The notes beneath the pieces were generated by a model that ran no database searches, was not told where the DNA came from, and saw only the letters and a program-made list of their open reading frames with translations. DNA of 64,000 bases, from assembly GCA_026991575.1 (NCBI GenBank), contig JALXBF010000179.1:1-64000 (forward strand). The letters are read 5' to 3'. How positions within the stretch are numbered: position 1 is the first letter of the stretch; every line of letters begins with the position of its first letter. Positions 5,251-14,823 of the stretch are shown here, piece after piece. Origin of the DNA: Planctomycetota bacterium (GTDB taxonomy: Bacteria; Planctomycetota; Planctomycetia; JALXBF01). A program made the position numbers and the translations under genes.

Positions 5251-7939
5251 AAGGTTTCACCGCCACCCATTTCGGCTCGTAGGTGTCCGGTCGCACCGGC
5301 AGGTCGCCTTCCAGTGCATAAACTGACCAGTTCACGGCGTCCGCTAGCCCGCGGTAATACGCGCCCTTTCGGGGGTCGATGCGCTCTGCGGCCCAGGGAG
5401 ACCACAGAAACACAGTGCCCTCATGCGCACCAAACGCAGCCACCAGCCTACCGAGCATTCCCGCGCCGCAGTCCGGAAGGGCCGCGCGGCTGAGTACGAC
5501 CTTGGGGTCTTCATCGGGATCACTCTGCAACATAGGGCCTACGATGTGAATCTCAACCGGCCGTCCGAACCGCCTCATGGCGTTGGCCATTGCCTGGAGC
5601 GGCAGGATCGTGTCAACCGGGAAGGTCAGTGTCGTATGAGCGGTCGAACTTCGTAAGTAGTTCAAAGTATTTCTTACCGCTACAGGTAGCGATACTGACG
5701 AGGCAAGACGGTCATAGCTCGACGCTGCGTACAGTACCCAGCGAACCTTGCGCTTCGGCTCTACCGGAGGGCGACGTGGCCTATCAACCGGGCCGTGCCG
5801 ATCGCAATTGAATGTTCGCGTCTCAATCGTCCCGTCTGCCAACCCCCTGGCAATGCAGCGGTTTGACACGAACTGGGCCGGGCCGGCTTGAGAATTGCGA
5901 TCTGCCCACGCGTGGCAGCGTTCCGCGTCAGCAATTCCATATACATCGTATACCCAACCGCCTCGTTCCATGCGGGTCGACCAGACCAAGTGGCGACGGT
6001 CAGGAGAGATGTCAACTGCGGAGAGCGAAACGGGGCTCGTCCGGAAGCCGCCGTAAGCGATGGGCATGCGGCTCGCAGTGTCCCACACCTCGAAGTGAGC
6101 CGAATCCATAGCCAGCCCCGATCCCTTGGTACCGAGTGCCACCATCTTGCCGCACGCGTCCAGCCAAGTAGCCCATCCCATCGAAGGGATCTCCCAGATG
6201 GGGCTGTCCTTCCCGATGCGGGCAACGCTGACAACGGCGTCGTCGATGTGACCACCCAAGAACGCTACCGTATCCTTGTCGACCAGAGCGGTCATGTACA
6301 AGGCAAGGATTTGGTGCTCGCGGAAACCTGTCACTGAGAACGTCCCACGGGTTGGCCCTGCTTGTGGGTCGAGAGGCTTCCAAGTGCCCCATAGGCGGAA
6401 GCGCGACCCAGGATCACGCTGGAAAACCAGGGCCTGCCTATCGTGAACCGGGACCTCACGGTACAGGCGGTCCTGTAAACCTTGCGCCGTAGCCGGCCGC
6501 TGAGTCACCTGCCCTGTACGCAGGTCTATCCGGTATAGGACACGGCGAGTTCCACACCAGACCGCACCAGCGGGATGGTCGACGCCCCACCAACGTACGC
6601 CAAGGAGGCTCCGGATCAGACACCCGTCCGATCGACTCCAAACGCGGACGAGGCCTCGCTCTGCTGTTACCAGGCATGCCTGCGAGGCTGCCACGGCCAG
6701 GGGAATGCCAAAGTGTGCGCTGGGTCCGACCAATTCTCCCGTGCGCGGGGACAACAGCGCAACCCCTCGCTCGGTCCGGGCGACCACGCAGTCAGGCCCA
6801 ACCCCTACTAACCCATCAACCTCAGGCACATCGACTTGCCACAGCATGGCGCCCGAATCCCGATCGATTGCGGCGACGGTGCTCAAGTCGCGCACCTCGT
6901 ACAACAACAGAGGACTAGTGGTGACGCGGTCCAGCCACACAGCAAGCCTTCCGCCTAGACGGAGTTCCGACTCGCGGGATTCCGGTCCAGGAAGCGTTCT
7001 AGCCCAGTCGAGGTGCCAGTTGCCGGCATGAACGCTCCACTGTTGCCAGCTCTGGCCATCGTAGAAGACGAGACTCGTCCCTTCGGCTTCGATCGCCCCG
7101 CATAGAGCCTCGGTCGGGTATTCCCAAACGGTTTCCCGTTTTCCCGTGTCTAGGTTGCACGACAGTAGCTGCGTCCGGCGACCGGCTACAAGCACGATAG
7201 CCGTAGCTGGGCCGCGCCAGCGTGCATCCAGCACGCGGCCGCGCACCTGGAACGCGCGCAAGTCGATCTGACCAGAGGGGGCAACGGTGACGTGAACCAC
7301 TGAATGGGAGGCTTCTTTCGCACCCGGTTGCGCGCACCAGTAAAACAGCACCGCCCCATCCCGTGCCGGCCGCGTCTCCAGCCGGTGCCGCAGGTCACCG
7401 ACACATCTGGGCTGAGGAATAGAAGCGAGTGCCCGTACCGGCACCTGGCGCTCGGCACCGGTGCCGAGTTCAACGCTGACGACCCTGGCAGTCGGTGCTC
7501 CTCGGCGGCGCAACAGCAGCCACAGGCGGCCCGCCCCCGTGATCGATCGGCATAAGGCAACGTCGATGTCATCAGCACTCCACTCTTGTTCCTCTTCGGT
7601 AAGCTGAAGCGATACCGAGAAAGCGGATCTGGCGCCCCTGCGCGGGTGCAGCAAGCTTGCCACCCGCTGTGCCCGCACGACCACTCGGTCCGTTGCTTCA
7701 GGGAGCGCTTGCACAAGCACCAGGCGGTCACCTTCCAGCCACGCACCCAAGACGTGGCCAGCGGGCGTTGCCGCTTCGCCGTAGCGCCGAACAGACGGCA
7801 ACTCGTCTGCCCCGAGGGCGGAAAACGGCCCGCTGAGCAGCAAGGCTCCGGTCAGGGACACCAGTGCCCAGCAGACAAGCGCCAAGCCTGCGCTTGGCCT
7901 ACCGCTTGTGCTCTGATTTCTTGGGCGACTCCGGCACAT
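5231..7939 (-). CDS. Secreted quinoprotein-like beta-propeller protein with a distinct C-terminal domain
   Basis: 902 residues from the ATG at 7939, which gives a clean signal peptide (LALVCWALVSLTGALLLSG, then a probable cut near ALGA). The frame stays open 50 codons further upstream, but that part is basic and unlike coding sequence. Most of the protein is repeated beta strands of the PQQ/WD40 propeller type (GAMLWQVDVPEVDGLVGVG; TGQVTQRPAT; SAVDISPDRRHLVWS). The last ~170 residues, from KVRWVLYAASSYDRL, alternate strands and helices (PVEIHIVGPML; GTVFLWSPW) like a Rossmann or von Willebrand A-type fold, without a clear metal site. The start overlaps the end of the RHS gene and the end overlaps the next propeller gene, so the three form a tight set. 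Confidence 0.65.
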   Translation of the reverse strand: MCRSRPRNQSTSGRPSAGLALVCWALVSLTGALLLSGPFSALGADELPSVRRYGEAATPAGHVLGAWLEGDRLVLVQALPEATDRVVVRAQRVASLLHPRRGARSAFSVSLQLTEEEQEWSADDIDVALCRSITGAGRLWLLLRRRGAPTARVVSVELGTGAERQVPVRALASIPQPRCVGDLRHRLETRPARDGAVLFYWCAQPGAKEASHSVVHVTVAPSGQIDLRAFQVRGRVLDARWRGPATAIVLVAGRRTQLLSCNLDTGKRETVWEYPTEALCGAIEAEGTSLVFYDGQSWQQWSVHAGNWHLDWARTLPGPESRESELRLGGRLAVWLDRVTTSPLLLYEVRDLSTVAAIDRDSGAMLWQVDVPEVDGLVGVGPDCVVARTERGVALLSPRTGELVGPSAHFGIPLAVAASQACLVTAERGLVRVWSRSDGCLIRSLLGVRWWGVDHPAGAVWCGTRRVLYRIDLRTGQVTQRPATAQGLQDRLYREVPVHDRQALVFQRDPGSRFRLWGTWKPLDPQAGPTRGTFSVTGFREHQILALYMTALVDKDTVAFLGGHIDDAVVSVARIGKDSPIWEIPSMGWATWLDACGKMVALGTKGSGLAMDSAHFEVWDTASRMPIAYGGFRTSPVSLSAVDISPDRRHLVWSTRMERGGWVYDVYGIADAERCHAWADRNSQAGPAQFVSNRCIARGLADGTIETRTFNCDRHGPVDRPRRPPVEPKRKVRWVLYAASSYDRLASSVSLPVAVRNTLNYLRSSTAHTTLTFPVDTILPLQAMANAMRRFGRPVEIHIVGPMLQSDPDEDPKVVLSRAALPDCGAGMLGRLVAAFGAHEGTVFLWSPWAAERIDPRKGAYYRGLADAVNWSVYALEGDLPVRPDTYEPKWVAVKPYEANNR

Positions 7940-10900
7940 AGATGACCCATGACGACGGAGGTGGTGTAACGTTGCCATTGGTATCGTAACGGATGGGAAC
8001 TGGGGGGAGCATAAACAACCCATCCGGTACGGTTGGCGATTCCTTGACAATAGTCGTCGTTTCTTCCGACAGCGCAACCGTGCAGACACAGTCTGCCCTC
8101 CTTCTTGCCATGGCGATCAATAAGCTTTTCGAAGGCTAGCGGACTAGCCCTTCTGCGTCCAACCTCTTGCTTGGGTGGCGGGTTTGATGCTCGCGTCCGG
8201 TCACTGTGAGCGATAACGTGAGTCTCGTCAGCTTTGCCACCGAGTGTGTCCAGTTGACCCTGCAGTTTCGGGCTGGGCGCGTGTGTGCCGGTCAACTTGC
8301 CGATGTGTGTCACTCTTACCTTCACGATCTTCGATGGCGGATCGTCCTCTTTCTTGGCATTTTCCGCGATTTCTGCGGCCAGTCGTTCGGCCGCGGCTGA
8401 AAACTCCACGCCCGTTGCCAGGCCCGGGCCACCCCGACCAGAGGGGTCGTAGACAATCAGCACACGGCGCAGCTCGTTCTCGCCTTCTGGTGCCCCAGCA
8501 GACAGGCCCAACCGGTCGACGAGCGTAACAGGGCGGTGGCCCGCATAACGGTACGAGCTGCTGTCGGTCGCTAGGCCGATGGGATCGGCACTGGCGAAAC
8601 TTCCTGTCGCTGGGGCCTGGTACCGAGCGACCATCGCCCACAGTTTGCCTGAACCGCTTCTGTCTCTGCCAGTGAATCCGAACCGCCAGGCGCTGCTCCA
8701 CCCGCCGACCGGTAGGCCGAAGCTTTCGTAGGCGACGCTGGCGAGGATGGTCCCCGACGAATCCACCCAACCCCGGATGCTGCCGACGTAGTCGGTGAGG
8801 TCGAAGGTGATTTCGCCGAGGGCGTCTTCTCGGGCAAGGAGGGAGTCAACGGCGGCGGCGTAGAGGCGGCGCTCGGTGAGCTGCGCGGTGATGCCGTCCG
8901 AAGTGTCCGGGTCCGTGAAGTCGGCAATCGGGTTGGCCGCGAAGATCGCGCTTGAGTAGATGCCATCCACATACGGGGCTAGGCCGCCCTGGGCGATCTG
9001 CTCGGCCGTCGGCGGCTGGGCCAGGTCATGCAGCACAAACGTGAACCGCTCCGGCTCAGGGCCGGTCGGGCCGTCCGGGTCCTCGTAGAACGCGATCCGG
9101 CGGTTGAACGCGTCGTAGACGTACGTCTCACTCCACAGCACATTCCCCTGGCCGTCCTTGTGCACCACGGCCGTCAGCCGGTTGCGGTAGTCCCACGTGT
9201 ACTCCGTCACCTCGCCGGTCAGCGTGTTCGTCTTGCGAATCAGGTTGCCTTCGTTGTCGTACTCGTAGTCGTTGGTTCCATCCGACAGCAGCCGATTGTC
9301 CGCACCGGTCACATAGCCGGTGCCGTGCAGGTGAGACTCCGTTCGATTGCCATTGGGCGTGTAGCGGTAGTACTCGACCAGGTTCCCCTGGCCATCCCAC
9401 ACGTCCGTCAACTGACCCTGCGGGTCGTACGCATACGTGCGCGTCCCTTCCGGACCGCTGTACGCCACGATCTGACCGGCCGCATCCCAGGTGTACGCGA
9501 AGTCCGCCAGCGGCGTCGCATTGCCCTGCGAATCCACGTAGTCATGGTCAATCAGCGTCACCCGCGAGGCGGCGTCATAGCTGTAGTTGGTGACGATCTG
9601 GGGATCCTGACCCCACCCACCACCGGAGCCGGGCTCAAAGCGGATCATCCGCACCAGCCGGCTGGCCGCATCGTAGGCGAACTGCACGGTTGCCTTCGGC
9701 GTGCCGCTGACGACCAACTCCGCCTGCGTCATCCGCGACAGCTTGTCATACTGGTACCGCCACTCGGTGCCGTAGTTGTCGGTGAGGCGGATGCGGTTGC
9801 CCGCATCGTCGTAGGTGTTGGCAAGCTGGATGACCGGGTAGGTCGAGGGGCTACCGGTGTTGTCCAGACTGATGATGCGGCCCGCGTCGCCGTAGGCAAG
9901 CGTGTAGGTCTGGTTCGGGTCGGAGACGCCAATCAACTGGTTGGCGGCATCCCAGGTGTAGCTGATCTGAAAGATGATCTGGCCCTGGCCGTCGAGCCAC
10001 TTCTCTGCGGTGCGGCGGCCGTCGAGGTCGTAGTCGAACTCACGCCGCCGTCCGTTGCGGTCGACGACGGCCGTCAGTTGACCAGCGGCATCGTGCTCGA
10101 GGAAGCGGCTCAGCCCCAGCGCGTTGATCTCTTCGATGACCCGATCCACGGCATCCAACCGCCACTGGGTCGTGTTCCCATCGGCATCGGTCAGCGAGAT
10201 GAGATTGCCTTCCTCATCATAGCCGAAAGTGATCTCCGGGTTGTTGCTCGGGTCACTGTCGCCATCGGGCAGGATTATGGCCGTCCGCCAGTCGCGGGCG
10301 TTGTAGCGGTACCGCGTCGTGCGGCCCAAGGGATCAGTGACCGCGGCGACCATGCCGGTGAGGGTGTAGCTGATGGTGGTCTGATTGCCGAGCGGATCTC
10401 GGGTGGCGATCACTCGGTTGCGTGCATCGTAGTCCCATTCGGAGCGGTTCCCCAGCGGATCGATCGCCGCGATCCGGTTGCCCACCAAGTCATACTCCCA
10501 CTTCCAGCGATTGCCTTCTGCGTCGACCAGCTCGATGAGCCGATCGAGGTTGTCGTACTGATAGTCGGTCTGGCTGGTTTCCAGGCCTGCCAGGGGGTCG
10601 GTGCGCCGGACGAGCCGATCGACGGCATCCCAGCTGAAGGTGGTCTTGGCGCCGGTTGGATCGGTGATGGCGATGACCCGGCCGCGAGCGTCGCGTTCGT
10701 AGCTGGTGGTGCGGCCCAGCGGGTCGGTGACCGACAGGAGCCGCTGCTCGGCGTCGTAGGCGTAGCTGGTGACAAAGCCCATTGGGGTGGTGACGGTGAC
10801 CAGCGTTCCGAGGGCATCGTAGCCGTAGCTGGTCTGGCGGCCCAGCGGATTGATGCTTGCGATGACTTCGTCGGCTGCGTTGTAGAGCGTCTGCCAGATG

Positions 10901-10980
10901 GAGTTGTTCGTGGGGTCGGTGTCCTCATCGGGATCGATCACCTTCACCGGCCGGTGCAGCACGTCGTACTCATAGCGCAC
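7852..10980 (-). CDS. RHS/YD-repeat protein, apparently 5'-truncated and 3'-frameshifted, with a caspase/CHAT-like tip
   Basis: 1042 residues. More than 20 YD repeats (pattern YxYDxxGrl) cover residues 1-700, followed by the RHS core signature FASADPIGLATDSSSYRYAG and VDRLGL near residue 830. The variable tip, about 838-1000, opens with a beta strand (RRVLIVYDP) and contains THVIAHSD (His925) and CLHGCAVG (Cys969), the His/Cys layout of CHAT/caspase-type proteases. The start is a GTG without a ribosome-binding site, and RHS-like sequence begins only about 25 codons upstream, next to a repeat element. The usual secretion and shell N-terminus is therefore missing. At a C6 run (plus-strand G6, 8002-8007) the protein-like frame moves: removing one C would end the protein at 7899 with a natural-looking tail. 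It may be a silent cassette or pseudogene. Confidence 0.8.
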   Translation of the reverse strand: MRYEYDVLHRPVKVIDPDEDTDPTNNSIWQTLYNAADEVIASINPLGRQTSYGYDALGTLVTVTTPMGFVTSYAYDAEQRLLSVTDPLGRTTSYERDARGRVIAITDPTGAKTTFSWDAVDRLVRRTDPLAGLETSQTDYQYDNLDRLIELVDAEGNRWKWEYDLVGNRIAAIDPLGNRSEWDYDARNRVIATRDPLGNQTTISYTLTGMVAAVTDPLGRTTRYRYNARDWRTAIILPDGDSDPSNNPEITFGYDEEGNLISLTDADGNTTQWRLDAVDRVIEEINALGLSRFLEHDAAGQLTAVVDRNGRRREFDYDLDGRRTAEKWLDGQGQIIFQISYTWDAANQLIGVSDPNQTYTLAYGDAGRIISLDNTGSPSTYPVIQLANTYDDAGNRIRLTDNYGTEWRYQYDKLSRMTQAELVVSGTPKATVQFAYDAASRLVRMIRFEPGSGGGWGQDPQIVTNYSYDAASRVTLIDHDYVDSQGNATPLADFAYTWDAAGQIVAYSGPEGTRTYAYDPQGQLTDVWDGQGNLVEYYRYTPNGNRTESHLHGTGYVTGADNRLLSDGTNDYEYDNEGNLIRKTNTLTGEVTEYTWDYRNRLTAVVHKDGQGNVLWSETYVYDAFNRRIAFYEDPDGPTGPEPERFTFVLHDLAQPPTAEQIAQGGLAPYVDGIYSSAIFAANPIADFTDPDTSDGITAQLTERRLYAAAVDSLLAREDALGEITFDLTDYVGSIRGWVDSSGTILASVAYESFGLPVGGWSSAWRFGFTGRDRSGSGKLWAMVARYQAPATGSFASADPIGLATDSSSYRYAGHRPVTLVDRLGLSAGAPEGENELRRVLIVYDPSGRGGPGLATGVEFSAAAERLAAEIAENAKKEDDPPSKIVKVRVTHIGKLTGTHAPSPKLQGQLDTLGGKADETHVIAHSDRTRASNPPPKQEVGRRRASPLAFEKLIDRHGKKEGRLCLHGCAVGRNDDYCQGIANRTGWVVYAPPSSHPLRYQWQRYTTSVVMGHLCAGVAQEIRAQAVGQAQAWRLSAGHWCP

Positions 10981-11049
10981 CGTGTCGCCGAAGGTAACTG
11001 GGCGCTTGCGAGGGGGCGGAAGAGCAGTAATGCTGGCCGGGAGATGGGC

Positions 11050-11424
11050 GAATCGAGCCAGGAGGGTGCTTCAATGGGCGGCAGGGGGCCTTTGTGCCCC
11101 CCTGCCGCTGTGTTGATGGGTAGCGGGGGCGGTACGGGTCTTGTTTGCTTTTCCCGTAGTGGAAATGCCCCGGACGCCGCGGACGCTGTCCGCGGCGTCG
11201 GCGAGGTGGCATCGCGCTCCCTCCGGGACGACAGCGCAATCTCTCTGCGCACAGCGCCCGCCCAAGGGAATCGGACCACCCGGGCCGCGGGCGGGATCGA
11301 CCCGCCCGCGGCCCGAAAGGGAAAAAAGTTCTTTGGAGATCTGCCCGCGCTATCCATCAACGTTGCGGGCGGGGGGGCATGAAGGCCCCCGCCCGCCCAT
11401 TGAAGCAGGCTGCTGGGTTGATTC
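11050..11424. repeat. Inverted-repeat element, copy 1 (arms A and B)
   Basis: Arm A (plus, 11050-11130) and arm B (minus, 11341-11424) are similar and face each other tail to tail. Each arm has a lead-in GAATC..CCAG..AG..TGCTTCAATGGG, a G-rich/C-rich hairpin (GGCAGGGGGC with GCCCCCCTGCC in A) and a tail resembling GTTGATnGATAGCGnGGGC. Each arm is followed by a strong second hairpin: 11173-11183 with 11189-11199 (11 bp perfect) after A, and 11281-11295 with 11301-11315 (15 bp perfect, loop ATCGA) after B. From the TGCTTCAATGGG of A to that of B is 341 bp. No protein is encoded. This is compatible with a MITE-like or structured-RNA element next to the cut-off 5' end of the RHS gene. Confidence 0.6.
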
Positions 11425-12221
11425 GGCAGTTCCGGACGCAGCATCCGGGCCACTCGTTGTCGTCGAGCACCATGGTGTGCACGGCCTACCGTCCGCCGGT
11501 CGCCACACGCGCAGATCGTGCCCCGCGCCGCAACCACACGGCCCGCGACCCCGTCTGCACCGGTCGCTGCCGTACCCATCTCCTCGCCTCACCGCTGGCG
11601 GTGCCCGCCAACCCGCCCCGCGAGGGAAACTTTTCTAGTTGAAACGGCAGTAGGATCCCTCGGCCGTCGCGCTCACGGCTGGGCAAGGTCGATCGGATCG
11701 ACCGCTACCAACACCTCCGCCGCCTGCTGTTCCACTACCCGGCGCCTGTACCGCCCAATCACGGGGGCAACGCCCACACGCCCGTTGCGCCGACCGCGCC
11801 ATGGCCACAATAGCCTCGATGCCCTCCTCTGCATGTTCACCAGCTCCCGTCCCCTCCCCGCCCTTGCAGCACGCTGCGCTCGGGTCAGATGAGCACTCCT
11901 GGTCGGGGCAAACCGGACGATCAGGTTGGTTGCTCGCGCGGCGTGGCCACTGCCCCAAACTACCGATGCCACCCCCGCTGCGAGGTGCAGAGTGGTTCGC
12001 GAGGAGCCACCGAAGAGCGCCGATGCGCACGGTTCTGCTCCCTGCTACGGCGCGCTTTAGCTCATGGTGGTGTCCGTCGTGCAAGCCGCGTGTGGCGATG
12101 GACTTCACGCGGGTGCGCTTCAGTTCTTGCGCCCACTCTGCCGGTAGGTTGCTCGCTCTATGTGCTGGCGAGACGGCCCTGGGCGTGTCGCCGTGTCAGC
12201 GTTGCAGTTCGCAGACCGGGG
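11425..12221. other. About 800 bp with no convincing gene between the two repeat elements
   Basis: High-GC sequence. The frame with a protein-like look is 11643-11813 plus (HLRRLLFHYPAPVPPNHGG), which lacks a start codon and could be the end of a decayed gene. The opposite strand has a 157-residue open frame (11635-12108) of Gly/Ser/Arg-rich composition without motifs. I do not call either a gene. Confidence 0.35.
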
Positions 12222-12550
12222 GACTGATTGAGCGGACCGGCTGGTTCAACGGGCGGGCGGAGGGGGGAGCTTTACGCTCCTCATCCGCAACGTTGATTGA
12301 ATAGCGGGGCAGATCCAGAGAACTCCTTTTTCGCGCCATGCTGCTGGCCAGTCCGGCCCGCGGCACAGCCCTGGAACGCTGCCCTTCCGCCGCAGTCCAC
12401 GCCCGTGGCGGCAGCGCAAGAGAAGAAAACTCAAGGGATATCGCCGGCGCTAAACGGGATTTCACCGACTGTACGCGGTCCTGCCGGGGGCGAAAAGTAG
12501 GTTCCTCCTCGGTCGCTGTCGCGGAAGGATTCGTGCGAGAGGATAGCGAG

Positions 12551-12580
12551 GAGGAACCGTTATGGGAGGAACCGTTATGG
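12551..12580 (+). repeat. 15-bp tandem duplication carrying ribosome-binding site and start codon
   Basis: GAGGAACCGTTATGG occurs twice back to back (12551-12565 and 12566-12580). Each copy holds a GAGGA ribosome-binding site and an ATG, at 12562 and 12577. Because 15 is a multiple of three, both starts are in frame with the transposase and differ only by the five residues MGGTV. Confidence 0.9.
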
Positions 12581-13683
12581 ATCGAAGAACGCGGCAGAGA
12601 AGCCTACAACGGCGTTGGTGTTCGCTTTCGCGTGGTGTGCGGGATCGCCTGAAGCGGGCGCGCCACTACAGCACCGACGCTACGCTGCGGTTGCGGATCC
12701 GTGCGGTGCTCCATTGTATGGGCGGGCTAAGTTGCCGGGAAGCGGCGCGGCGGCTGAGGTGTAGCGACCGCTTTGTCCGGCTGGCGACGCAGCGTTTTAT
12801 CGAAAAAGGTCCGGAGGCATTCTGCGACGGTCGTCGTGGCCGGGGTAGGGCGAAGCGCTTGACGGCGCAGTTGGCCGGGCTGCTGCGGGAGGCAGCGAGG
12901 CGTGGTCCGAAGGCGTTTGGTTATGACTGGAACTACTGGACGGTGAAGCGGTTTGTTCGGCTGGTGGCGGATCGTTTGGGGGTTCGGTTGGCGGTAGCGA
13001 CGATGTGGCGTTACCTGCGTCGGCTGGGTATTCGTCGGGTGCGAGCGAAGCCGTATGTGGTGACACCGTGGCCTAAGGAGCGGGCGTTGCGTCGGTTATG
13101 GTACATCTGCCGGCAGCTGCGGCGGGTGGGGCCGGACGAGGTGGTGGTGTTTGCGGATGAGAGCGAGGTGCACTTGAATCCGAAGATAGGCTACGACTGG
13201 TGTATGCGTGGTCATCGTCGTCGGATTCGGACGCCAGGCACCGATGTGCGTGTCTATGGGGCGTTGGCGCTAGAGCACGGTACTCGGCGGTTGGTCGCGG
13301 TGTGGGGGCGGCGGAAGGATAGCGCTCTGTTTCGGTCGTTGCTGGCGCGACTGGATCGGGTCTACGCGAACAAGCGTAGGATCCACGTTGTGCTGGACAA
13401 CGCTGCGATCCACAAGTCGAAGGCTGTGGGTGAGTACCTCCAGCAAAAAGGCGATCGGTTCAAGCTATGGTTCCTTCCTCCCTTCTGTCCTGATGCGAAT
13501 CCGGTCGAACTCGAGTGGCAGGCTTTTCATGCGGCAGTGACGGTCTTGCACAGCCGTGTCGACATCGACACTCTGATCGCCGACGCCAGCCGTTACCTTG
13601 CCAATCGCTCCCGATCCAACACACTACGTCACCGCGATCATCCGTGGGACTGGAAACCTACCGCCTCGCGTCTGCCCGCGTAA
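12562..13683 (+). CDS. IS630-family transposase
   Basis: 373 residues (or 368 from the second start at 12577). An N-terminal helix-turn-helix (about residues 53-72, GLSCREAARRLRCSDRFVRL) and a winged-helix region precede a complete DDE catalytic domain: Asp199 in VVFADESEVHLNP, Asp279 in VVLDNAAIH, and Glu316 in NPVELEW, spaced 36 residues after the second Asp as expected for IS630/Tc1-type enzymes. It cuts and pastes its own DNA at TA sites. Length and motifs look intact, so the element may be active. It sits between inverted repeat arms C and D. Confidence 0.92.
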   Translation: MGGTVMDRRTRQRSLQRRWCSLSRGVRDRLKRARHYSTDATLRLRIRAVLHCMGGLSCREAARRLRCSDRFVRLATQRFIEKGPEAFCDGRRGRGRAKRLTAQLAGLLREAARRGPKAFGYDWNYWTVKRFVRLVADRLGVRLAVATMWRYLRRLGIRRVRAKPYVVTPWPKERALRRLWYICRQLRRVGPDEVVVFADESEVHLNPKIGYDWCMRGHRRRIRTPGTDVRVYGALALEHGTRRLVAVWGRRKDSALFRSLLARLDRVYANKRRIHVVLDNAAIHKSKAVGEYLQQKGDRFKLWFLPPFCPDANPVELEWQAFHAAVTVLHSRVDIDTLIADASRYLANRSRSNTLRHRDHPWDWKPTASRLPA

Positions 13684-13913
13684 CCTATATGAAAAACCGT
13701 TTAGTCAATAGTCAATCAACCCCCGGCCTGGGGGGCACAAACCCCCCGGGCCCGTTCGAAGCAGGCGGCACAATCCCTCCGCCTCCAGCTTCGCACGCCA
13801 CCAACACCGCGCGGGGTATCAAGTTATCCGGTCGCACGGTACGACGCCGTACCACTGCCTCGCATACCTGGTGTGCTGCAAGGGCTGAAACGCACCCACT
13901 TCAGGCGGTTCAC

Positions 13914-13941
13914 TTGACAGCCTCAAGCCATGGGCTAGAGT
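13914..13941 (+). promoter_or_regulatory. Sigma-70-type promoter for the tandem-repeat protein
   Basis: A perfect -35 TTGACA at 13914-13919 and a -10 TAGAGT at 13936-13941 (four of six matches to TATAAT) with 16 bases between. It lies about 110 bp ahead of the ATG at 14050 in the 366-bp gene-free stretch 13684-14049, which otherwise holds only the end of IS630 and repeat arm D. Confidence 0.5.
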
Positions 13942-14049
13942 TACGTGGATTTGGGGTTGTTCCGTAACACGGTCCGGCCGAATGCGGGGCAAATCCAACA
14001 CGTCCTTGGTCTAGTGCGTCTCGTAGTGTCTCAAGAACGGGGGGTTGTG

Positions 14050-14823
14050 ATGTACGTATCCAGCATCTCTCGGCCGGCATGGCTGCCTGCACAGCGAATG
14101 CGGCAGCAGGCCGCTGCGCCGAGCGGTAATCTCGCAGATCCCGCAAGTGTACCGTTTCCCGGGCGACAGGGGGTCATTCCTACACCGACGGCGCGGGCGC
14201 GAGCTAGCTCAACCGAGCTGGTCGGTTACATTCCGACGCCCAGCGCGCATGGGACTCCGGACGGTCCGGTGGATCCAAGCAAGGTCGCGTCTCCTGAGCG
14301 ACAGGGGGTCATTCCTACGCCGGCGGCACGGGCGCGAGCTAACTCAACCGAGCTGGTCGGTTACATTCCGACGCCCAGCGCGCATGGGACTCCGGATGGT
14401 CCGGTGGATCCAAGCAAGGTCGCGTCTCCCGAGCGTCAGGGGGTGATTCCTACGCCGGCGGCACGGGCGCGAGCTAACTCAACCGAGCTGGTCGGTTTTA
14501 TCCCGACGCCCACCGCGCATGGAACTCCGGATGGTCCGGTGGATCCAAGCAAGGTCGCGTCTCCCGAGCGACAGGGGGTCATTCCTACGCCGACGGCACG
14601 GGCACGAGCCGACTCAACTGAACTGGCAAGCGCTGCTACTACGGCAGCAGAGCGCCGTGGCGGTCCTGTGGATCCACCAAGCCCGGCTACCGGTTCGGGA
14701 GCATCCATGGCGTTTACCAGCATGCCTGACCCCGATCGGACCGGTGGCTTGCAGCCTGGTCCTCAGCCTAAGCCGTACGGCTTCCACGCGGCCGCCAGCA
14801 GCCGCGTTAACTTCCTTGCCTGA
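14050..14823 (+). CDS. Protein built of 45-residue Pro/Ala/Ser-rich tandem repeats, function unknown
   Basis: 257 residues from the ATG at 14050, which follows a GGGGGG run (ACGGGGGGTTGTG). The frame is open back to 13945, but that lies next to the -10 element. Residues about 39-192 consist of three full 45-residue units and a partial fourth: RQGVIPTP.ARARA.STELVG[YF]IPTP.AHGTPDGPVDPSKVASPE. Each unit contains IPTP twice. There is no signal peptide, membrane segment or Cys. The low-complexity Pro/Ala/Thr composition suggests an extended, unstructured chain, and the TP sites could suit phosphorylation or binding, but that is inference. A strong terminator follows. I do not recognise the family. 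Confidence 0.7.
   Translation: MYVSSISRPAWLPAQRMRQQAAAPSGNLADPASVPFPGRQGVIPTPTARARASSTELVGYIPTPSAHGTPDGPVDPSKVASPERQGVIPTPAARARANSTELVGYIPTPSAHGTPDGPVDPSKVASPERQGVIPTPAARARANSTELVGFIPTPTAHGTPDGPVDPSKVASPERQGVIPTPTARARADSTELASAATTAAERRGGPVDPPSPATGSGASMAFTSMPDPDRTGGLQPGPQPKPYGFHAAASSRVNFLA
14164..14625 (+). repeat. 135-bp in-frame tandem repeat (3.4 copies)
   Basis: Units start at 14164, 14299, 14434 and 14569, exactly 135 bp apart; the fourth ends after STEL at about 14625. The units are nearly identical in DNA, including synonymous positions (for example CAGGGGGTCATTCCTAC), which indicates recent duplication or gene conversion. Confidence 0.95.

What the first reader, a model, noticed from the sequence alone, without database searches (positions are those of the whole stretch)
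11050..13780. Two copies of a ~335-bp tail-to-tail inverted-repeat element, the second split by IS630
Seen: arms A (11050-11130, plus) and B (11341-11424, minus), and arms C (12225-12322, plus) and D (13709-13775, minus), share a lead-in, a G/C hairpin and a GTTGATnGATAGCG-type tail. A-B spans 341 bp; C-D spans 1522 bp, or 332 bp without the IS. A second strong hairpin follows arms A and B. Inference: a non-autonomous mobile or structured-RNA element, duplicated locally, with IS630 inserted in one copy. I know no named family like it.
Basis: partly seen in the sequence, partly recalled or inferred. Interest (0 to 1): 0.7.

Follow-up and report, generated by a model that had tools for sequence, protein, structure and literature searches.

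The report
Repeated hairpin pairs hosting group-II introns
The two elements belong to a family of about 80 hairpin arms scattered through one planctomycete genome; the arms are the places where that genome's group II introns (self-copying RNA elements) have landed, and shortened introns also carry such arms inside them.

Summary
The A-B element is one of about 40 related stretches in its own genome. A covariance model of one arm finds 88 places at E<=0.01 (about 84 once palindrome double counts are removed). It finds none in 148 other genomes of the class. No match of weight turned up in 293 other genomes of the phylum, 84,980 species genomes, IMG/VR, plasmids or phages. The IS630 in C-D is confirmed: 12453-13701, flanked by TA; joined flanks restore a family arm.

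The new result is what the arms do. The genome holds about 20 class C group II intron 5' ends but one intact intron reverse transcriptase. Introns begin exactly at the 3' foot of arm-type hairpins (...CCCG|GTGCG) and, in five copies, end against the arm's tail (GTTGATGG or a diverged form). Unoccupied arms such as A and B are the empty sites. In a second intron lineage the arms sit inside domain I, so an intron lying in an arm carries a further arm. In the window, 10980-11026, outside arm A, is a relic of intron nt 61-108.

Group IIC introns targeting hairpins is known. A lineage-specific palindromic family that is both landing pad and passenger is a new variant. How the family itself spreads is not settled.

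The parts
7855..10979 (-). RHS gene fragment, truncated at its 5' side; the same RHS/intron-relic junction recurs beside other copies of the element
   Evidence: PF05593 RHS_repeat; copies ending at the same point in L046, L047, L048, L049, L050, L051, L057
10980..11026 (+). Relic of group IIC intron domain I (intron nt 61-108), directly outside arm A
   Evidence: 84% identity to nt 61-108 of the intact intron in L042
11027..11077 (+). Lead-in of arm A (..GGGAGATGGGCGAATCGAGCC..TGCTTCAATGG)
   Evidence: Shared by most arms
11078..11108 (+). Arm A hairpin; empty class C intron site at 11107^11108, the point where introns sit in L042 and L043
   Evidence: Fold; intron copies resume the element at element position 68 = 11108
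11112..11130 (+). Conserved tail of arm A, GTTGATGGGTAGCG..
11173..11199 (.). Inner hairpin 2 (GACGCCGCGGAC-GCT-GTCCGCGGCGTC)
   Evidence: z -3.3; recurs in the family
11281..11315 (.). Inner hairpin 3 (CGGGCCGCGGGCGGG-ATCGA-CCCGCCCGCGGCCCG)
   Evidence: z -7.0; the most conserved inner part
11341..11425 (-). Arm B (tail, hairpin, lead-in on the minus strand); empty intron site at 11366^11365, the point where introns sit in L041 (5' junction) and L052 (3' junction)
11425..11618 (.). Outer flank of arm B, repeated beside other copies
   Evidence: Coverage by about 7 loci, ends at 11618
12110..12224 (.). Outer flank of arm C, shared with L046, L062, L064
12225..12322 (+). Arm C (right-type arm of the second element)
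   Evidence: Covariance-model hit 12214-12317, E 4e-8; fold z -2.2
12453..13701 (+). IS630-type insertion (transposase ORF 12562-13683), flanked by TA 12451-12452 and TA 13702-13703
13704..13775 (-). Arm D (left-type arm of the second element); joined with the sequence left of the IS it restores tail, T-rich stretch and an inner hairpin
   Evidence: L064 carries an intron in a similar arm
13776..13898 (.). Outer flank of arm D, shared with L057 and L064

Best explanation
The elements are members of a lineage-specific family of two-armed palindromic repeats ('R'). Each arm is lead-in + G/C hairpin + GTTGATGGRTAGCGC tail, and two arms face each other tail to tail with two further hairpins between. 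In this genome the arms act as landing pads for class C (IIC) group II introns: the intron RNA with its reverse transcriptase recognises the hairpin and reverse-splices in at its 3' foot (mechanism by analogy to known IIC introns). One intron lineage, mostly without its own protein gene, carries R sequence inside domain I, so an intron sitting in an R arm brings a further empty arm with it. Only one intact intron reverse transcriptase of this family is present and would have to work in trans. Recombination between the many R copies then joined different flanks to the arms (RHS fragments, intron halves, other repeats). Shown from sequence: the family, the hairpin, precise intron/arm junctions, arms inside introns, IS630 in C-D. 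Inferred: that insertion was by retrohoming, that R-carrying introns moved after acquiring R, and the role of recombination. Unknown: what first spread R and whether R serves the host.
For: Family and stem. Intron identity: Rfam RF00029 hits, four over cut-off; intact intron L042:31-2000 with RVT_1 + GIIM protein and no endonuclease domain found, closest solved relative GsI-IIC RT. It is the only full-length copy in the genome. Junctions: in L041, L046, L054, L102, L124, L129 the 5' exon is an arm ending ...CCCG|GTGCG; 3' exons are CTCTGTTGATGG (L042, L043), GTCTGTTGATGGGTAGC (L062), CAAGGCTGATGGATAGCG (L052), GGAGGTGGATTGAATAGCG (L057). 8 of 19 intron 5' flanks score >10 bits with the arm profile, against 11 of 4000 random 70-mers, a background that includes the window's own arms. 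L062 (C27) has arm-type sequence on both sides and R inside domain I. Arms inside introns: maps, where most of 20 intron 5' ends run from nt ~108 into an R lead-in and four continue as normal domain I. C170 and C70/C146 intron starts are 98.6-99.3% identical over 148-159 nt, while the upstream similarity of C170 to the other two is confined to the arm. Window: relic of intron nt 61-108 at 10980-11026.
Against: L042, the intact intron, has an R tail as 3' exon but a different hairpin as 5' exon. Several 3' ends (C93, C173, C143, C157, C65) lie outside R arms, so R is not the only target. R-carrying introns lack much of domain I (nt ~110-380) and may be dead, so their spread by retrohoming is doubtful; recombination at arms could copy the same junctions. 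The conserved GTTGATGG tail is 3' exon, which IIC introns barely read, so its conservation needs another cause or simply recency. The assembly is a fragmented MAG and many copies end at contig ends.
Confidence: 0.68

Rival explanations
1. R is an independent non-autonomous transposable element (MITE-like, long terminal inverted repeats) mobilised by some transposase; the introns merely exploit it.
For: Two-armed architecture recurs as a unit; R lies within intron domain I in several copies, and in L049 the intron resumes at nt ~95 after R, overlapping the ~108 end on the other side, which looks like a duplicated target.
Against: No constant element ends: outer similarity fades between -10 and -86 depending on the partner. 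No autonomous element with these ends found. No Y1 transposase in the genome.
Confidence: 0.2
2. R arms are intrinsic transcription terminators or stabilisers of the host, and IIC introns used them as ordinary terminators.
For: IIC introns are known to insert after terminator hairpins (PMC4424553); R has strong hairpins and T-rich stretches.
Against: No T run follows the stems; a terminator scan of 10900-14000 finds none. In the window the elements lie between a minus-strand RHS fragment and a plus-strand ORF, not at gene ends.
Confidence: 0.1
3. R is a REP/REPIN-like family made by a RAYT (TnpA_REP).
For: Short palindromes in inverted pairs, dispersed, one genome only.
Against: No Y1_Tnp match in a 97.8% complete genome, while the same search finds it in E. 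coli; arms of ~100 nt are far longer than REP (21-65 bases, PMC1525189).
Confidence: 0.03
4. R is a decayed integron/attC cassette array.
For: attC palindromes are the other known IIC intron target (PMC7923331).
Against: No integron integrase over cut-off; introns sit at the stem foot CCCG|, not at TTGT|T; arms come in inverted pairs, not as single sites between cassettes.
Confidence: 0.02

Closest known systems
Class C (IIC) group II introns, e.g. GsI-IIC and other terminator-targeting introns
   Same: Reverse transcriptase with maturase domain and no endonuclease domain found; 5' GTGCG, D5/D6 matching RF00029; insertion right after a hairpin.
   Different: The hairpins belong to one lineage-specific repeat family rather than to assorted terminators, and an ORF-less lineage carries those hairpins inside domain I.
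Twintrons / nested intron arrays (Thermosynechococcus elongatus TeI introns, PMC2882425; Methanosarcina acetivorans, PMC4424553)
   Same: Introns inside intron-derived sequence, ORF-less copies driven in trans by few proteins.
   Different: What lies inside domain I is the landing pad, not (as seen so far) a complete second intron.
REP sequences as targets of specialised IS (IS1397, ISPsy8, ISPpu9/10; PMC1525189)
   Same: A dispersed palindromic family used as target by a mobile element, with reconstitution of the palindrome when the flanks are joined.
   Different: Here the user is a retroelement, arms are ~100 nt in tail-to-tail pairs, and no RAYT is present.
IS630/Tc1-mariner family
   Same: The insert in C-D: DDE_3 transposase and TA at both ends.
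   Different: Only an intruder in one copy; not part of the family.

Membership tests
Class C (IIC) group II introns (for the inserts in the arms) | Reverse transcriptase + maturase protein without endonuclease domain | tested here: met
   L042 ORF: PF00078 and PF08388 only; best solved relatives are IIC RTs
Class C (IIC) group II introns (for the inserts in the arms) | Domain V/VI at the 3' end | tested here: met
   RF00029, four copies over cut-off
Class C (IIC) group II introns (for the inserts in the arms) | Insertion just 3' of a hairpin | tested here: met
   Nearly all complete 5' ends follow a hairpin, usually ending at or within a few nt of the junction
Class C (IIC) group II introns (for the inserts in the arms) | IBS1/EBS1 and IBS3/EBS3 pairing; self-splicing | not tested
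   No reliable domain I model made; needs bench test
REP/REPIN (RAYT-made) | RAYT (Y1 HUH transposase) in the genome | tested here: not met
   no PF01797 match
MITE / transposon with terminal inverted repeats | Constant ends and fixed target duplication | tested here: inconclusive
   No constant end found; possible ~14-nt overlap in L049
Integron attC sites | Integron integrase in the genome | tested here: not met
   none over the curated cut-off (a diverged integrase is not excluded)
Intrinsic terminators | T run directly after the stem | tested here: not met
Known structured RNA (Rfam) | Covariance-model match | tested here: not met
   only RF00029 in neighbouring introns
IS630 (insert in C-D) | DDE_3 transposase, TA target duplication | tested here: met

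The most novel reading that the evidence does not exclude
Self-renewing landing pad: an ORF-less IIC intron lineage carries its own target hairpin in sense orientation inside domain I, so each insertion into an arm uses one site and delivers a new one, driving nested growth from a single reverse transcriptase gene acting in trans.
Probability: 0.3. Interest if true: 0.7.

Novelty: new variant of a known kind. Interest (0 to 1): 0.5.

Why it matters
IIC introns are known to pick hairpins, but their targets are usually unrelated terminators or attC sites. Here a whole repeat family serves as target, with many empty and occupied arms in one genome, and the repeat is also found inside the introns. 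That makes it testable whether a retroelement can multiply its own target sites, and offers a natural set of target variants for learning what a IIC intron reads. It also warns that many contig breaks in this genome are caused by one nested repeat system.

Tried and rejected
REP/RAYT origin (no Y1 transposase). Integron/attC. Intrinsic terminators. Rfam RNA families. tRNA/tmRNA. Presence elsewhere: 39 class relatives by BLAST gave only short G/C-hairpin matches (checked); the tail pattern in 84,980 genomes gave 9 single hits whose similarity stops at the motif; IMG/VR none; plasmids and phages none; 148 class genomes by covariance model and 293 phylum genomes by BLAST none. Comparing exon with intron divergence to time the insertions was inconclusive. 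RNAalifold on the raw alignment found only 6 pairs, so a named structure was counted instead.

Full report
1. The observation. A and B match as inverted repeats well beyond the G/C runs, and all four arms fold better than shuffled sequence. BLAST of 11041-11430 in the window's own genome (4.96 Mb, 191 contigs, 97.8% complete) gives about 40 stretches at 66-98% identity, many at contig ends. A profile built from the window's arms finds them mostly as plus/minus pairs about 300 bp apart. A covariance model from 48 arms finds 88 places at E<=0.01, four of them palindromic double counts.

2. Anatomy. An arm is: lead-in GGGGATGGGCGAATCAACCCGGCAGCTTGCTTCAATGGGC, hairpin GCGGGAGGGGGGC-TTTAT-GCCCCCCTCCCGC, and tail NNNGTTGATGGRTAGCGC. 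The stem is paired in 90.7% of cells and shows real exchanges at two stem positions. 'Left' arms (A, D) lead inward to hairpin 2, 'right' arms (B, C) to hairpin 3. Outside the lead-in the flanks fall into several types shared by subsets of copies, so the family is mosaic.

3. Introns in the arms. Copies L043 and L052 contain group II intron domain V next to the element, and Rfam RF00029 gives ten matches in the genome, four over cut-off. L042 holds an intact intron of 1970 nt with a reverse transcriptase/maturase ORF. Its nearest solved relatives are IIC enzymes, and no other full-length copy exists. Searching the genome with the intron's first 110 and last 150 nt gives 20 and 22 matches. Most complete 5' ends directly follow a hairpin, and the majority of those hairpins carry an R lead-in (CTGCTTCAA..GGGC). 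8 of 19 score over 10 bits with the arm profile, against 11 of 4000 random 70-mers that include the window's own arms. Five 3' ends (L042, L043, L052, L057, L062) abut an arm tail, GTTGATGG or a diverged form of it. L041 (5' junction) and L052 (3' junction) independently place the site in arm B at 11366^11365; L042 and L043 place it in arm A at 11107^11108. In the window both sites are empty.

4. Arms in the introns. Mapping the intact intron and the element onto all loci shows R inside intron remnants. L057 and L064 read intron 1-110, R left arm to hairpin 3, then intron ~380-590 and 1815-1970. L032, L034 and L035 are 410-465 bp minis: intron 1-110, R right arm with hairpin 3, intron 3' end. 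L049 reads RHS, intron relic, whole R, then intron from nt ~95. Of 20 intron 5' matches, four continue as normal domain I (C19, C122, C48, C140), while most of the rest run into an R lead-in at nt ~108. C27 (L062) is an R-carrying intron lying between arm-type 5' hairpin and arm tail, i.e. R inside an intron inside R. In the window the 47 bp outside arm A (10980-11026) are intron nt 61-108, fused to an RHS fragment. That fusion is shared by at least seven other copies.

5. C-D and IS630. The IS lies between TA dinucleotides (12451-12452, 13702-13703). Joining the flanks restores the D arm's tail, T-rich stretch and an inner hairpin as in L064. C and D belong to a subfamily also seen in L046, L062, L064 and L057. 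L046 has an A-B-like element followed by a C-type element, as the window does, so the pair is an old arrangement rather than a fresh local duplication.

6. Mechanism. Established knowledge: IIC introns lack an endonuclease and insert after intrinsic terminators or at attC palindromes (PMC4424553, PMC7923331), and ORF-less introns can be driven in trans (PMC2882425). Given exact junctions at a conserved hairpin foot, the most likely process is IIC retrohoming into R arms, with one reverse transcriptase gene left. That R-carrying introns themselves moved is suggested by C170 versus C70/C146: 98.6-99.3% identical starts, with upstream similarity to C170 only in the arm. Recombination between arms could give the same picture, and these introns lack much of domain I. 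How R first spread is open. A transposon with fixed ends is not supported and RAYT or integron origins fail their tests.

7. Distribution and novelty. Nothing comparable was found outside this genome, though no genome of the same family, order or genus was among those returned, so 'lineage-specific' means relative to the class. Repeats as targets are known for IS in REP sequences (PMC1525189) and nested introns are known; a repeat that is both target and passenger of IIC introns I did not find in the papers searched, a limited open-access sample.

Noticed in passing
window 13945-14823 (+): ORF with at least four near-identical ~45-residue repeats (..RQGVIPTPTARARASSTELVGYIPTPSAHGTPDGPVDPSKVASPE..), no Pfam match.
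   Followed up: no
window 7855-10979 and L046, L048, L049, L051, L057, L093, L096, L098: Several RHS fragments, 93-95% identical in long stretches, truncated at different points; a block of related RHS pieces shares one junction with the intron relic and the element.
   Followed up: partly
L032, L034, L035, L049: YhgA/Rpn-type (PF04754) genes repeated beside element copies, with shared flanks.
   Followed up: partly
L032, L034, L035 (mini introns): Their exons together form a compact palindrome (lead-in, hairpin, reversed lead-in) instead of hairpin plus GTTGATGG; a third type of 3' exon (CCCGCTCAGGCACGCCGGATCC) recurs at C143, C157, C173.
   Followed up: partly
G000:C96:33459-34649: A second reverse transcriptase, 33% identical to the intron protein, in a 682-codon open frame; intron context not examined.
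   Followed up: no
L036, L037, L056, L060, L063: An about 0.5-1 kb repeated stretch without Pfam match flanks the right arm in several copies.
   Followed up: partly
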